The translations under genes were made by a program, and so were the position numbers. Below are positions 3,901 through 8,412 of a stretch of DNA of 64,000 bases, piece by piece (positions within the stretch are counted from its first letter, which is position 1; each line of letters opens with the position of its first letter). The DNA comes from Streptomyces ardesiacus. Its GTDB lineage: Bacteria; Actinomycetota; Actinomycetes; Streptomycetales; Streptomycetaceae. Under the pieces are notes generated by a model. The model was not told the origin of the DNA. It saw only the letters and a program-made list of their open reading frames with translations, and did not search any database. The stretch lies in contig NZ_BEWC01000001.1 in assembly GCF_003112575.1 (NCBI RefSeq), forward strand, positions 1,504,289 to 1,568,288, given 5' to 3'.

Positions 3901-4836
3901 CCCGAGCCCGGCGGGCCGGGCGATCACCTGCCGAGGCCCGTCCAGGAGAGGGCCGGCGGCGACACCGCCACGGGCATCGGATGTGTCGGGAAGGACGGGA
4001 CCGGCGAGACCGGCGGGACCGGCGGGACCGAGGGGCCAGCAGCGGCAGGACGAGCCGTCGCCGTCGCGTCGGTGGCAGCCGCGTCACCGCCGTCTCACCG
4101 AGCACCGTGAGACCGGTTCGCCACCCGGGCTCTGGCGTCGGGGGACGGTTCTGTGAGGATTTCGCCGCGGGCGGCCGGGCGCTTCCCTGCGTGTGGCGAG
4201 GGCGAGCGGATCCCCTGTCGCAGAGTTCATGGTGGCGGCGAGCCTGTGGGCCGGGCCTGCGAAGACCGAAGGCGCGCGGGTGCAGCCTGGTGACAAGTAC
4301 TACGGGGATCAGTCCTTCGCGGTGTCCGACGACGTGGCCGAGACCCGTGGCTGAGCCCCTGGCGGGTCCTGCTCGCCCGGGACGGTCCGTACGTCAGCTA
4401 CCGGCACAGTCCGTCCCCGGCGGGGGAGACGTCGAGTTTCTCCCGGGCTGTCTGACCGGGCACCCGAAGATGCGGTTCAGTGCCTATGCGGCATGGGCGG
4501 GCGACAGCGCCGGCCTGGTCCTCACCGCGTGCCAGGACGCCGCGGCGCGCGGGGGGAGCAGCGACGGACGTGCCGGTGTCCGGGCTGCGGGCCGGGGGCC
4601 GGTTTTGCATGTTCGACTGCTTCGACGCGGTCGTCGCTCTGCTGGGGGTGGACGTCGTGCATGGCCGGGTTGCGGCCCCACGGGGTCGCGGACGGCATCC
4701 GGTGCGGTGCGGTGCGTGCGGTGCGGGCCCGTCCGTCGCCGGGGCCGACTCCTCCCTGCCCTTGTCCGAGCAGGCTTGTCGGACGGCGCTGTCAGTGGTG
4801 CGCGGTAGCTTGGGGACTGTTCGAGATCGCGGGGCG
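3901..4836. other. Gap with no supported gene
   Basis: No open frame here has both a start signal and consistent codon bias. Short stretches such as MVAASLWAGPAKTEG (from 4229) and SAYAAWAGDSAGLVLTACQD (from about 4471) look like coding debris. A small tandem repeat lies at 3997-4032. Confidence 0.5.
3997..4032. repeat. Four tandem copies of a 9-base unit
   Basis: GGGACCGGC, GAGACCGGC, GGGACCGGC and GGGACCGAG follow one another without gaps. This is a short slippage-type repeat in non-coding DNA with no evident function. Confidence 0.8.
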
Positions 4837-4850
4837 GGAGGGGTGAATTC

Positions 4851-5519
4851 GTGGGTGTCAGGCATGCGTTGAGTGTGGTCCTGGTCGACGTCAACGACGA
4901 GGTGGTGACGGCCTGGCGGTCCGCTTTCGCGGACACGCCGGAGGTCGGGATCAGGCGGGGGTCTCTTCTGGAGGTGGACGCCGACGCCTGGGTCTCGCCC
5001 ACCAACGAGCGTGGCCGGATGGACGGCGGGGTCGACGCCGTCGTCAAGCGGTACCTCGGTGCGGGTATCCAGGTGCGGGTGCAGCGGGCGATCCGTGACC
5101 GGTTCGGCGGGCGGCTGCCGGTGGGCAGCGCGGTGTGCGTGCCTTCCGGGGCGGAGGTGCCCCGGTACCTGATCTCGACGCCGACCATGCGCCAGTCGTC
5201 ACAGGATGTCAGCGACACGGTGAACGTGGCCCTGGCCTGCGCGGCCGCCTTCCAGGCGGTGCATCTGCAGAACCGGGCGAAGCCGGGCAGCATCCGGTCG
5301 GTTGCCCTCGTCGGGATGGGCGCGCAGACCGGGCAGGTGCCCGCGAAGGTGTGCGCCAACCTGATGTGGACGGGCTACACCCTCTTCCACGACCACGGTT
5401 TCGCGGACTACGACGAGTTGCGGGCCGCTGTCCTGGCGCAGCTCGACGACATCGAGGGAGCGGGGTCCGCGCGGCGGGTCCGGATCAACGTGCCGCAGCG
5501 GCCTTCCTATCGTCCTTGA
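4851..5519 (+). CDS. Macro-domain (ADP-ribose binding/hydrolase) protein
   Basis: A 222-residue single macro domain. The ADP-ribose pocket motifs are visible: SPTNERGRMDGGVD (residues 49-62, with Asn52 and the Gly-rich loop), LPVGSAVCVPSG (89-100) and the phosphate loop GMGAQTGQVP (155-164). Macro domains bind or remove ADP-ribose from proteins, nucleic acids or O-acetyl-ADP-ribose. GTG at 4851 follows GGGAGGGG. The next gene, 85 bases downstream on the same strand, encodes an ADP-ribosyltransferase, so this protein probably reverses or limits that modification, as DarG does for DarT. The single-gene function is inferred. The pairing with an ART strongly favours a hydrolase or antitoxin role. 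Confidence 0.85.
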   Translation: MGVRHALSVVLVDVNDEVVTAWRSAFADTPEVGIRRGSLLEVDADAWVSPTNERGRMDGGVDAVVKRYLGAGIQVRVQRAIRDRFGGRLPVGSAVCVPSGAEVPRYLISTPTMRQSSQDVSDTVNVALACAAAFQAVHLQNRAKPGSIRSVALVGMGAQTGQVPAKVCANLMWTGYTLFHDHGFADYDELRAAVLAQLDDIEGAGSARRVRINVPQRPSYRP

Positions 5520-5604
5520 CCCGAAGGGCCCGCAGGCCCCGGCCGTCCAGGGCGCGGGCACCGGTGCCGGCCCTGCCGCATCTGTTCAGCATGCCGGGGC
5601 GCCC

Positions 5605-7308
5605 GTGGAGGCCTCCGGTGCGAGTACCGGGAGTTCCATCCTCGTGAGTAATGCCGATGTGACGGTCGCGGGCGATGCCGGTTCCCCGGCCCAAGACCCG
5701 CTGGGACTGGCCGGCCTGTTCGCCGGTGGCGGCGAGCCGTGGCTGCCGCTGCTCAGACCGGTGATCGAGGCGCAGCCGGGAGCCGCCGACTTCATCGGCC
5801 CGAAGCGAAGCCCGGAGATCGTTCCGGTACGCGAGCTGACGTTCCAGGCGTTGAAGCCGCATCCGCCGGAGAAGTGGAAGGTGGTCGTCTTCGGACAGAA
5901 CCCCTATCCGCGGGCGGAGAGCGCGACCGGCATCGCGATGTTCGACAACACCTTCAACGACTGGAAGGACAGCCGGTTCGGCAGGGTCGTCAGCATCCGC
6001 TGCCTCATCAAGGCGGCCGCGATGTGGAAGTACGGCATCGTCAGGAAGACTCCGATCGCGGACGTCCGCGCCCTGCTGAAGAAGGAGGACACGGTTCAGC
6101 CGCCCGAGTGGTTTCAGGCGATGCTCACCCAGGGTGTGCTGCTGCTGAACGCGTCCCTCACGGCGAGCGCGGACGGGGCGATGGCGACCGACCGGCACAC
6201 GTCGTTCTGGCGCCCGGTGGTCGAGCAGATCGTCGAGGAGATCCTGCGGGCGAAGCAGGGTGCGGCGGAGGAGGACGACCGGGGGGTGGTGTTCGCCTGG
6301 TGGGGCGCGCACGCCCGCAGCCTGAAGAGGGTTGTTCAGCGGCTGGCGCAGAAGTACCCGGGGGTGCAGGTGCGTCACCTGGACCACGTCAATCCGGCCG
6401 CACAGGGGGACCTGTTCTGCGAGGGCGACCATTTCGCCCAGGTGAACGACGCCCTGGCGGCCGTGGGGGCCGAGCCGGTCGACTGGCTGCCGCGGAAGGG
6501 CTGGGACCAGGGGACGCACGGGGCCGGCGGGCCCGGGGACGGTGGTGTCGCGCAGCGGATGGGCGCGTTCATCGCGTCCACGATGGAGTTGCACCAGCTG
6601 TATCTGGAGCGGCTCGCCGGCGTCAGGGACGAGGGGCTCGTTCTGCCGCCCGTCACCGGGGTGTTCGACACGCCGCTGGTGGACTTCCGAAAGGCCCTCG
6701 AGCCGGTCTCGCGGGTGCTCGCACACCTGGACCGGCACATCGACCTGTCGAGGCGTTTCGGGGAGACGAAGGCCGCGGAGGCGGCGTCCGGGGGCCCGCT
6801 GTCCGGGCAGGCCGCAGCCAGCCTGTCGGCGGACGCGATCTCGGCCCTCTACCTGTACACGTGCGAGTCGGGCTTCTACCGCGAGATCAACGCCGTGCTG
6901 CGCTCGTCGGACCGTGAGCGCGTGGTGCCGTACCTCCCGTACCTGCGGTTGCTGTTCTCGGCGATGGAGGCGTTGCCGGCGCGGACGCGGCCGTTGTGGC
7001 GTGGTGTGGCGCTGGACCTGCGGTCCCAGTACCCGCTGGGGAGGACGGTGACGTGGTGGGGCGTGTCGTCGTGCACGTCCGAGCCGGGTGTGGCCCGCGC
7101 GTTCCTCGGCAGACGCGGCCGGCGGACGCTGTTCGAGGTGACGCCCGCGCGGGCGGTGGGGATCCGGCAGTTCTCCGCGTTCACGGGTGAGGAGGAGTAC
7201 ATCCTCGCGCCGGGCACGCAGCTGAAGGTGACGGACGTGAAGGCCGAACGCGGGGGTCTGTGCACCGTACGGCTGACCGAGCTGGAAGGAGCCGGCCTGG
7301 TGTCATGA
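5605..7308 (+). CDS. Uracil-DNA-glycosylase-like domain fused to an R-S-E ADP-ribosyltransferase
   Basis: A 567-residue protein if read from GTG 5605; GTG 5644 is an alternative start and costs 13 residues. Residues about 70-300 align with family-1 UNG. VVFGQNPYP (94-102) replaces the catalytic GQDPYH, LLLNASLT (179-186) keeps the base-recognition Asn182, HVNPAA (261-266) matches HPSPLS and keeps the histidine, and PVDWLP (291-296) matches the UNG C-terminal PIDWMP. Residues about 405-565 form an arginine-type ART: LYLYTCESGFYREIN, the R in WRGV (466), SSCTS (488-492), the F/TLFEV strand and the ExE turn GEEEY (Glu529, Glu531). All three catalytic ART elements are present, while the glycosylase Asp is Asn. 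It is co-directional with the macro gene and followed by a terminator. Confidence 0.85.
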   Translation: MEASGASTGSSILVSNADVTVAGDAGSPAQDPLGLAGLFAGGGEPWLPLLRPVIEAQPGAADFIGPKRSPEIVPVRELTFQALKPHPPEKWKVVVFGQNPYPRAESATGIAMFDNTFNDWKDSRFGRVVSIRCLIKAAAMWKYGIVRKTPIADVRALLKKEDTVQPPEWFQAMLTQGVLLLNASLTASADGAMATDRHTSFWRPVVEQIVEEILRAKQGAAEEDDRGVVFAWWGAHARSLKRVVQRLAQKYPGVQVRHLDHVNPAAQGDLFCEGDHFAQVNDALAAVGAEPVDWLPRKGWDQGTHGAGGPGDGGVAQRMGAFIASTMELHQLYLERLAGVRDEGLVLPPVTGVFDTPLVDFRKALEPVSRVLAHLDRHIDLSRRFGETKAAEAASGGPLSGQAAASLSADAISALYLYTCESGFYREINAVLRSSDRERVVPYLPYLRLLFSAMEALPARTRPLWRGVALDLRSQYPLGRTVTWWGVSSCTSEPGVARAFLGRRGRRTLFEVTPARAVGIRQFSAFTGEEEYILAPGTQLKVTDVKAERGGLCTVRLTELEGAGLVS

Positions 7309-7311
7309 CCT

Positions 7312-7371
7312 GGAGGCCCCGCTGGGGCTCGGGCACGCACGGCACGCGGTGCGGGCCCCAGCGGGGCCTCC
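7312..7371 (+). terminator. Terminator of the macro/UDG-ART operon
   Basis: Perfect 17-base arms (7312-7328 and 7355-7371) flank a 26-base loop, starting 3 bases after the stop codon. There is no T-run, as is common in Streptomyces. It isolates the two-gene unit from what follows. Confidence 0.8.
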
Positions 7372-7639
7372 CCACCCGACGGCCGTGAACGAGACGGCGA
7401 TCGCGACACCGCGCCCGGAGCCGGACACGACCCTGCTCACCGGGGCCCCGCGGCACGCCCGGGCCGCCGTCGACGGACCGCGGCAGCGGCGCCCTCGCCT
7501 CAGTACCGTACCGGGGTGCCGCTGCCTGCCGTCGGCACGTGAGAAGGACGCGCCCTCCCGCCCTGCACGGCCTGCACGGCCGGTGGGGGAGTGAGGCCGT
7601 GACGCGACACGTCCGTCGCCCGGGCTGGTGCGTGGGGCG

Positions 7640-8412
7640 CAGTGCCCGATCTGGCCGGCGGCGAGGTTGCCGCGGTTGGGGGCCAGGTGGTCGGTGGTCA
7701 GGGTCTGGTCGGTGCGGGCGTCCGGCTTGTGGGGGAGTTCGACAGAGGTGGACCGGAGCGGTTCCAGCGTGACGTTCAGCGGGACAGGGGTGCCCTCGGT
7801 GCCGGGCTTGTCCGCCGTCAGGCCGTGGCCGCGTGCCCGGCGGACGATCCACCAGGTCCGTGCCCTGCTGCCGCGGGCCGCGTCCGACCCTGCCGCCGCC
7901 GGTCCTACTCCAGCCGGTCAACGCCCGTGCAGCAGGACGTAGAGACCGAAAAGAGGGTGCCGTTCCTCGCGGGCCGGGACATCCTCGTGACCGGGCAGGG
8001 ACATTGATCGAGTCGGGCAGACCACTCAGCGCCAGGCCTCATACGAGCCCGTCGCCCCCGACGCGGCTCGTGGGTCTCGGTGATCGGCACGGCGGCCGCG
8101 TCCGCCGCCGCGACAGCCGCGTACCGCCACTGGGCAGCGGCGACTAGTGCTGCCGCAGACGGTGACCCCTCACCTCCGAAACGCCGCGGCCGCCTCCCGA
8201 AGCGGTGAACACCCGCTGCCCCGCCTCGTGCACTGAGCCACGCCGGGCGCGGTGTGGGGCGTCTAGGCGTCGTCCTGCTCGTGTTCCGCGAGCACGGCCG
8301 GGGCGCGGCGAGACGCTTCCTCGGCGAAGTGCTCCGTCCGCCCGGGCACCGGGGCGACGGCCTCCGGGGCCGTGAGGGGAAGCGGTCGTGCGCGGGCAGG
8401 CGGCGGGGCCCG
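7640..8412 (-). pseudogene. Minus-strand coding relics
   Basis: From about 7870 down to 7640 the minus strand reads in one frame with good codon bias (LTADKPGTEGTPVPLNVTLE, then SVELPHKPDARTDQTLTTDH) but lacks start and end. A second piece ending at the stop at 8263 reads PGRTEHFAEEASRRAPAVLA and EHEQDD. I recognise neither. Both appear to be tails of decayed genes. Bases 7372-7640 hold nothing I can support. Confidence 0.3.

What the first reader, a model, noticed from the sequence alone, without database searches (positions are those of the whole stretch)
4851..7371. Macro-domain protein plus UDG-ART fusion: a candidate new ADP-ribosylation system
Two co-directional genes 85 bases apart, closed by a strong hairpin, encode a macro domain and a protein that joins a family-1 uracil-DNA-glycosylase-like domain to a complete R-S-E ADP-ribosyltransferase. 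I know of no described system with this fusion. Macro/ART pairs such as DarTG attach and remove ADP-ribose from DNA and act as toxin-antitoxin or anti-phage modules. A glycosylase-fold domain could steer the ART to uracil-containing or base-modified phage DNA, or to abasic sites. Seen: both folds and their motifs. Established: DarTG logic. Inferred: a defence or toxin role.
Basis: partly seen in the sequence, partly recalled or inferred. Interest (0 to 1): 0.93.

Follow-up and report, generated by a model that had tools for sequence, protein, structure and literature searches.

The report
DNA-damage-linked uracil-reader ADP-ribosylation module
Streptomyces and related soil bacteria carry two neighbouring genes, sometimes fused into one, that join a uracil-DNA-glycosylase fold (likely a reader that no longer cuts) to an enzyme predicted to attach ADP-ribose and a partner predicted to remove it, behind a likely DNA-damage promoter, so the pair would be a bacterial counterpart of the PARP damage-signalling of our own cells.

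The parts
4789..4811 (+). RecA-NDp-type promoter motif CTGTCAGTGG-N7-TAGCTT, 39 bases before the macro start
   Evidence: 13 of 17 consensus positions; sites at the same place in 59 of 65 loci (this one included) and 74 of 79 named loci. Consensus letters recalled
4851..5519 (+). Macro-domain gene, 222 aa; predicted ADP-ribose eraser; MacroD-type catalytic-loop signature N52-x6-G59-G60-V61
5605..7308 (+). UNG-fold plus ART fusion gene, 567 aa
5689..6507 (+). UNG-fold domain, residues 29-301
5893..5910 (+). Motif A GQNPYP; Asn99 stands where family-1 UNG has its catalytic Asp
   Evidence: N in 121 of 121 close relatives, the query included; N49 S7 T1 A1, D0 of 58 rows showing the site
6148..6150 (+). 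Asn182, equivalent of the uracil-contact Asn of UNG (role recalled)
   Evidence: N in 81 of 82 rows with a letter there
6376..6402 (+). Motif B region HLDHVNPAA (residues 258-266); His261 at the likely place of the UNG catalytic His
   Evidence: His261 in 69 of 78, His258 in 76 of 78
6625..7305 (+). ART fold, residues 341-567
7000..7002 (+). ART R466 (R of R-S-E)
   Evidence: 71 of 71
7066..7080 (+). ART S-motif SSCTS, residues 488-492
   Evidence: S489 in 69 of 70
7189..7197 (+). ART ExE, residues 529-531
   Evidence: E529 67 of 67, E531 67 of 67
7312..7371 (+). Strong hairpin, likely transcription terminator
   Evidence: -59.2 kcal/mol, z -7.5

Best explanation
The two genes encode a macro domain and a UNG-fold/ART fusion that are found side by side in nearly every locus read, and they likely form a DNA-damage-induced, reversible ADP-ribosylation module in which the UNG fold is predicted to bind uracil or abasic DNA without cutting it and so bring the ART to damaged DNA, where it would mark a nearby protein or the DNA itself, and the macro protein would remove the mark. 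Shown here: the domains and folds (by homology and prediction); the adjacency in three gene arrangements; loss of the family-1 catalytic Asp with the uracil-contact Asn and the ART catalytic residues kept; purifying selection on both domains; the damage-promoter motif. Inferred: promoter activity and its regulator (PafBC), uracil or abasic binding, loss of excision, the ART target, hydrolysis by the macro protein, and the cellular role. In logic it would resemble PARP1 plus a macrodomain hydrolase, built from different folds.
For: Partnership: macro adjacent in 65 of 67 loci, the two others being ART-only remnants; 80 of 80 named loci, 35 tandem, 26 divergent, 19 fused, 8 arrangement changes needed on the tree, of which well-supported branches force at least 2 for tandem and 2 for fused; in 200 family genomes all 51 with a full (50) or frame-broken (1) UDG-ART also have the macro. 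Damage promoter: best match >=13 of 17 within 150 bp before the macro in 59 of 65 loci versus 29 of 11,394 background windows, and within 200 bp before the divergent UDG-ART in 17 of 45; named loci 74 of 79 before the macro, and 6 of 26 before the divergent UDG-ART. A degenerate pattern, chosen after seeing the family's sites, has 9 matches in the own genome against 0 for its reversed control; by eye from translations the genes behind them include RecA, a canonical UNG, an ExoIII-type and a RarA-type protein. Precedent: SCO6735, another Streptomyces macrodomain, has a RecA-NDp promoter and is UV-induced (PMC5087735, passages); in mycobacteria PafBC acts through RecA-NDp (PMC6789036, passages). 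Reader, not cutter: Asp absent in 58 of 58 rows while N182 is kept in 81 of 82; ART R 71 of 71, both E 67 of 67. Median pN/pS over 16 relatives: UNG domain 0.24, ART 0.28, linker 0.52, N-tail 0.79. A WWE domain, an ADP-ribose reader (recalled), sits on one relative, P0300 (E 1.6e-8).
Against: No activity, binding or expression was measured. Loss of the Asp does not prove loss of excision: no site is conserved in all UDG enzymes (PMC10776899, passages), and Asn at this place is catalytic in families 2 and 3 (recalled). His261 is kept in 120 of 121 close relatives. One Streptomyces study says an initial search suggested the M. smegmatis PafBC motif is not conserved in S. venezuelae (PMC9380542, passages). 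In the window alone the motif is weak evidence: 19 of 100 shuffles hold at least one match at up to two mismatches. Six of 65 and five of 79 loci score under 13. The SCO6735 mutant showed no UV or MMS sensitivity. In G084/L035 the macro match is split over two frames beside an intact UDG-ART, and in L139 likewise, which a strictly required eraser would not predict unless these are sequencing errors. MacroD-type macrodomains are not known to remove arginine-linked ADP-ribose, while ExE ARTs often modify arginine (both recalled), so writer and eraser do not obviously match.
Confidence: 0.5

Rival explanations
1. A toxin-antitoxin or abortive-infection module like DarTG: the UDG-ART is likely a toxin that is triggered by uracil-rich or damaged phage DNA, and the macro protein its antitoxin.
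For: Two-gene unit in variable neighbourhoods; patchy, 50 of 200 family genomes with an unbroken copy; full copies in four records of the plasmid collection, one of them a 335 kb linear Streptomyces plasmid (the others are 1.5, 5.7 and 11.9 Mb, so partly chromosome-sized); toxin and effector ARTs among the best fold matches; a frame-broken UDG-ART beside an intact macro in G183 and ART remnants in G149 and G018; damage signals can also report infection.
Against: No recurring defence family in 134 neighbour proteins of 13 loci: the commonest PADLOC model is in 3 of 134 and is an 'oxidoreductase'; no PADLOC match to the pair; no relative in viral contigs and only 24%-identity UNG-type pieces in phages; the fused single-polypeptide form in 19 of 80 loci is odd for a toxin and antitoxin; a damage-promoter motif shared with recA and ung.
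Confidence: 0.25
2. The UNG-fold domain is still an active glycosylase of altered chemistry (Asn in place of Asp, as in TDG/MUG or SMUG), and the ART would then cap or tag the abasic site or the repair complex.
For: Asn at motif A occurs in active UDG families (recalled); His261 and N182 kept in most members; no site is conserved in all UDG enzymes.
Against: Ser, Thr, Ala or Cys at the same place in relatives; His261 replaced by W, N, D, Y or S in 9 of 78; the genome already has a canonical ung behind the same promoter motif; the place of the intercalating Leu (recalled) is Ala265 in 77 of 79.
Confidence: 0.17
3. A housekeeping or developmental regulator: the ART would modify a metabolic or transcription protein and the UNG fold would bind a nucleotide or RNA, not damaged DNA.
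For: Lalic 2016 tied loss of a macrodomain to antibiotic production; PARP10, TARG1 and SCO6735 work shows that uracil bases in RNA can be ADP-ribosylated and de-modified (PMC13036486, passages).
Against: Accessory distribution and the damage-promoter motif.
Confidence: 0.08

Closest known systems
DarTG (DarT ADP-ribosyltransferase and DarG macrodomain)
   Different: The ART here matches PF01129 with R-S-E, and no DarT model was hit in Pfam, NCBIfam or PADLOC; it carries a UNG-fold domain; the macro has the MacroD-type N-x6-GG[VLI] loop; gene order varies and the two can be fused
PARP1 with PARG/MacroD hydrolases (eukaryotic DNA-damage ADP-ribosylation)
   Same: A damage-linked ART with a proposed DNA-reading domain and a macrodomain eraser (analogy; PARP facts recalled)
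SCO6735, Streptomyces coelicolor macrodomain hydrolase
   Same: Streptomyces macrodomain with a RecA-NDp promoter, UV-induced (PMC5087735, passages); removes thymidine-linked (PMC9411070, title and one passage) and uracil-linked ADP-ribose (PMC13036486, passages)
   Different: 161-aa stand-alone protein of the ALC1-like group with no transferase partner named in the passages read; the window's macro is 222 aa with a MacroD-type loop, and no SCO6735 structure was recognised among its sequence matches
Unconventional family-1 UNG of Nitratifractor salsuginis (5x3g/5x3h)
   Same: Best sequence and fold match to the UNG domain; shares the PYPR.ESA.G stretch
   Different: Keeps Asp (GQDPYP) and no ART is in the solved chain
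ART toxins and effectors: 6drh/6dre toxin/immunity pair (Tre1, name recalled), Vis, HopU1, XopAI
   Same: ART fold
   Different: Those are secreted or injected (recalled); this ART sits behind a UNG fold and beside a macrodomain

Membership tests
Family-1 uracil-DNA glycosylase (UNG) | UNG fold | tested here: met
Family-1 uracil-DNA glycosylase (UNG) | Catalytic Asp in motif A (GQDPY) | tested here: not met
   N in 121 of 121; never D in the 58 or 63 sequences showing the site
Family-1 uracil-DNA glycosylase (UNG) | Score over curated UNG equivalog cut-offs | tested here: not met
   71.9 bits against 162 for the best model
Family-1 uracil-DNA glycosylase (UNG) | Uracil excision activity | not testable with these tools
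   Needs an assay
Arginine-type ADP-ribosyltransferase (PF01129, R-S-E) | PF01129 over cut-off and ART fold | tested here: met
Arginine-type ADP-ribosyltransferase (PF01129, R-S-E) | R, S and ExE catalytic residues | tested here: met
   R466 71/71, S489 69/70, E529 and E531 67/67
Arginine-type ADP-ribosyltransferase (PF01129, R-S-E) | Transfer of ADP-ribose to arginine | not testable with these tools
   Target unknown
MacroD-type macrodomain hydrolase | Nx(6)GG[V/L/I] catalytic-loop signature (PMC10951314) | tested here: met
   NERGRMDGGV in the window protein; N52, G59, G60 in 64 of 64, position 61 V or L in 59 and T or A in 5 of 64
MacroD-type macrodomain hydrolase | G[V/I/A][Y/F]G diphosphate-loop signature | tested here: not met
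   Absent from the window protein; the likely loop reads G-M/L-G-A-x-T-G
DarTG | DarT transferase domain | tested here: not met
   No DarT family among Pfam, NCBIfam or PADLOC matches at E <= 1
DarTG | ART next to a macrodomain | tested here: met
   65 of 67 and 80 of 80 loci
RecA-NDp (PafBC-type) regulon | Promoter motif before the gene, above background | tested here: met
   59 of 65 loci versus 29 of 11,394 windows; 9 versus 0 genome-wide; motif letters recalled
RecA-NDp (PafBC-type) regulon | Induction by DNA damage | not testable with these tools
   Needs expression data

The most novel reading that the evidence does not exclude
A bacterial PARP-like system: a dead uracil-DNA glycosylase turned into a lesion reader, a transferase that marks the damaged site and a macro eraser, in the extreme all in one polypeptide, switched on with recA and ung; and, as relatives labelled Gracilaria and Prymnesium, a dinoflagellate-type record and one WWE fusion suggest, an old ADP-ribosylation family shared between bacteria and algae. 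It could supply the ADP-ribosyltransferase that Streptomyces workers say is yet to be discovered (PMC5087735, passages).
Probability: 0.4. Interest if true: 0.92.

Novelty: new variant of a known kind. Interest (0 to 1): 0.82.

Why it matters
To my knowledge it would be the first bacterial ADP-ribosylation system with a built-in reader of damaged DNA, so reversible ADP-ribosylation as a damage signal would not be a eukaryotic monopoly. It gives a concrete candidate for the transferase that the Streptomyces field describes as yet to be discovered, and it makes the question directly testable: the fused form puts reader, writer and eraser in one purifiable protein. The uracil link also meets recent work on uracil ADP-ribosylation and its reversal.

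Tried and rejected
Rejected: a chance or annotation artefact (codon pattern; 1,132 homologues at E <= 0.001 among the 7,989 candidates scored). Rejected: a Streptomyces-only curiosity; the UDG-domain search found relatives labelled Planctomycetota, Acidobacteria, Sandaracinaceae, Micromonospora, Gracilaria, Prymnesium and others (labels are the sources' own, and contamination of algal assemblies is not excluded). Not counted as orphans: macro genes in G034 and G036; the matches begin 236 and 100 bases from a contig start. Rejected: a third conserved gene; apart from the module no protein cluster occurs in more than 10 of 67 loci (ORFs picked by codon bias). Rejected: the MavL-type arginine macrodomain class, whose motif is absent from the window protein.

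Led nowhere: the phylum scan gave only same-genus members (3 of 396) and the class scan with the ART alone gave 10 of 296, of which three were weak matches in another genus, so neighbourhoods outside Actinomycetota could not be read; viral contigs gave no relative; phages gave three records with 24%-identity pieces; the plasmid search with the Sandaracinaceae relative returned the same four records. VIA-align lists for both models show 50 entries each; families not listed are not excluded. No background set of proteins was scanned with PADLOC, so the neighbour result is descriptive, and only the first 25 of 47 matched models were shown. My slips: in alignment A2 the row L036 was given on the wrong strand; A4 has it right and the macro counts come from A4. 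The three 'downstream' cases were rechecked and are fusions. The first promoter background was a simple base shuffle; one search replaces it.

Literature: ten searches; five bear directly on the fusion. No paper held all terms; the one paper (PMC8946771) was seen only in the listing; of the eight passages of two were read and those do not mention the fusion, the rest were seen only in the listing. Subscription papers and preprints are not covered. PMC11833690 was seen in outline and passages.

Full report

THE MODULE. A search for the UDG-ART gave 1,132 homologues; of the 120 listed, 64 are 700 aa or longer, the size of a single macro-UDG-ART protein. In 80 named loci (the 80 best of 201 relatives in the GTDB-species collection) all 80 have it: 35 tandem, 26 divergent, 19 fused; the tree, on which 35 of 77 inner branches are open, needs 8 arrangement changes. 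The two sets overlap in part and are not to be summed. In 200 family genomes, 50 have an unbroken full-length UDG-ART, one (G183) a frame-broken one, two only remnants; the macro subfamily is found in 53, namely those 51 and two whose match starts near a contig start. Nothing else around the pair is conserved: the next commonest neighbour cluster is in 10 of 67 loci. That the pair kept together through divergent, tandem and fused states is strong evidence for a shared function (inference). Against strict dependence, two macro matches are split over two frames beside an intact UDG-ART (L035, L139).

WHAT THE UNG DOMAIN HAS BECOME. Motif A reads GQNPYP in 121 of 121 close relatives. In a wide alignment (83 rows counted, four stand-alone outgroup rows left out) the catalytic-Asp place holds N 49, S 7, T 1, A 1 and never D among the 58 rows that show it; the motif-B His place is H in 69 of 78; the uracil-contact Asn is kept in 81 of 82. 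In the same rows the ART arginine is kept in 71 of 71, S489 in 69 of 70, and both glutamates in 67 of 67. A separate tally over the UDG-domain search, P0243-P0355, gave N 45, S 14, T 2, C 1, A 1 of the 63 that show the site. The UNG domain is nevertheless under purifying selection like that of the ART (median pN/pS over 16 relatives 0.24 and 0.28; linker 0.52; N-tail 0.79). The simplest inference is a binding domain that no longer needs to cut. The caveat is that UDG families differ in these residues and that Asn here is catalytic in other families (recalled).

THE DAMAGE PROMOTER. The window has CTGTCAGTGGTGCGCGGTAGCTT 39 bases before the macro start. It resembles RecA-NDp, the promoter type of the RecA-independent DNA-damage response of actinobacteria, which PafBC uses in mycobacteria; the consensus letters are recalled. 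In the window alone this is weak: one match with up to two mismatches where 0.20 are expected, and 19 of 100 shuffles have at least one. Across 65 loci the best match within 150 bases before the macro is at least 13 of 17 positions in 59, against 29 of 11,394 background windows from the same loci; within 200 bases before the divergent UDG-ART it is 17 of 45. The named set gives 74 of 79 before the macro, one further locus being truncated, and 6 of 26 before the divergent UDG-ART. In the own genome a degenerate form of the motif, chosen after seeing the family's sites, occurs nine times and its reversed control never. By eye from translations, the genes behind the sites include RecA, a canonical GQDPYH UNG, an exonuclease-III-type, a RarA-type and a YjbR-type protein, a methyltransferase and the macro gene; two more were not identified. 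Lalic et al. (PMC5087735, passages read) found the same promoter type before SCO6735 and 5-fold UV induction, but no UV or MMS sensitivity of the mutant. PMC9380542 (passages read) reports that an initial search suggested the mycobacterial PafBC motif is not conserved in S. venezuelae.

DISTRIBUTION. In the genome samples the full protein was found in Streptomycetaceae and, in the order sample, one genome of another family (28 of 147; 3 of 396 phylum genomes, all of the same genus). The named set adds Kitasatospora, Yinghuangia, Nonomuraea, Microtetraspora and a Streptosporangium-labelled record. Four of 72,556 plasmid-collection records carry a full copy, among them a 335 kb linear Streptomyces plasmid with one 2,406-base gene that matches both macro and UDG-ART. 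Outside, the UDG-domain search returned relatives labelled Planctomycetota (69% identity), Acidobacteria (60%), Sandaracinaceae, Prymnesium, Gracilaria domingensis and a record named symbB, which I take for a symbiotic dinoflagellate (recalled). Of those scanned, the Gracilaria-labelled (E 1.1e-17) and Sandaracinaceae-labelled (E 1.8e-10) proteins have an ART over cut-off, the Prymnesium one only below it, and the partial planctomycete and the symbB records show none; one unlabelled relative carries a WWE domain (E 1.6e-8). Whether these have a macro partner could not be read.

FUNCTION. The evidence fits a DNA-damage-induced writer and eraser with a lesion reader better than a defence module: the promoter motif is shared with recA and ung, and 134 neighbour proteins of 13 loci (ORFs of 100-900 aa picked by codon bias) show no recurring defence family. 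A toxin-antitoxin role stays open because the pair stands alone, is patchy and at times plasmid-borne, and because broken UDG-ART copies exist. The writer's target and the eraser's chemistry are unknown; if the writer modifies arginine, a MacroD-like eraser would be unexpected (recalled), so a nucleic-acid or acidic-residue target deserves testing first.

NOVELTY. Five literature searches aimed at the fusion gave no description of a UNG-ART fusion or of this module in the listings and passages seen. Public records are already named 'ADP-ribosyltransferase domain-containing protein' or 'uracil-DNA glycosylase', so the genes are deposited but, as far as these searches show, undescribed. I place it as a new variant of the known writer/eraser ADP-ribosylation kind, with a reader that I found in no described member.

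Noticed in passing
L202-L210 (own genome): Nine RecA-NDp-type sites in the genome; by eye, besides RecA and UNG they precede an ExoIII-type, a RarA-type, a YjbR-type and a methyltransferase gene, plus two unidentified genes: a small candidate damage regulon for Streptomyces.
   Followed up: partly
P0356-P0362: Stand-alone UNG-like proteins, one named Duganella callida, with GEGPYPRAESATG in place of GQDPYH: another UNG-like group without the catalytic Asp.
   Followed up: no
P0300, 392 aa: WWE domain (PF02825) fused to the same UNG-type domain in an unlabelled record, with Cys at the catalytic-Asp place.
   Followed up: partly
P0314, P0317, P0343, P0346: Relatives of likely algal origin share an N-terminal stretch with TWGRVVDG before the UNG-type domain; no Pfam match for P0317 or P0346.
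   Followed up: no
L044 (G183), L045 (G149), L046 (G018): Decaying copies: frame-broken UDG-ART beside a macro gene, and two ART-only remnants without macro.
   Followed up: partly
L035 (G084) 7140-7800 region; L139: Macro match split over two frames beside an intact UDG-ART: real eraser loss or sequencing error.
   Followed up: no
neighbour set A5 (13 loci): Single PADLOC matches to mad3, mad6 and PD-T4-6 models among 134 neighbour proteins; not recurrent.
   Followed up: no
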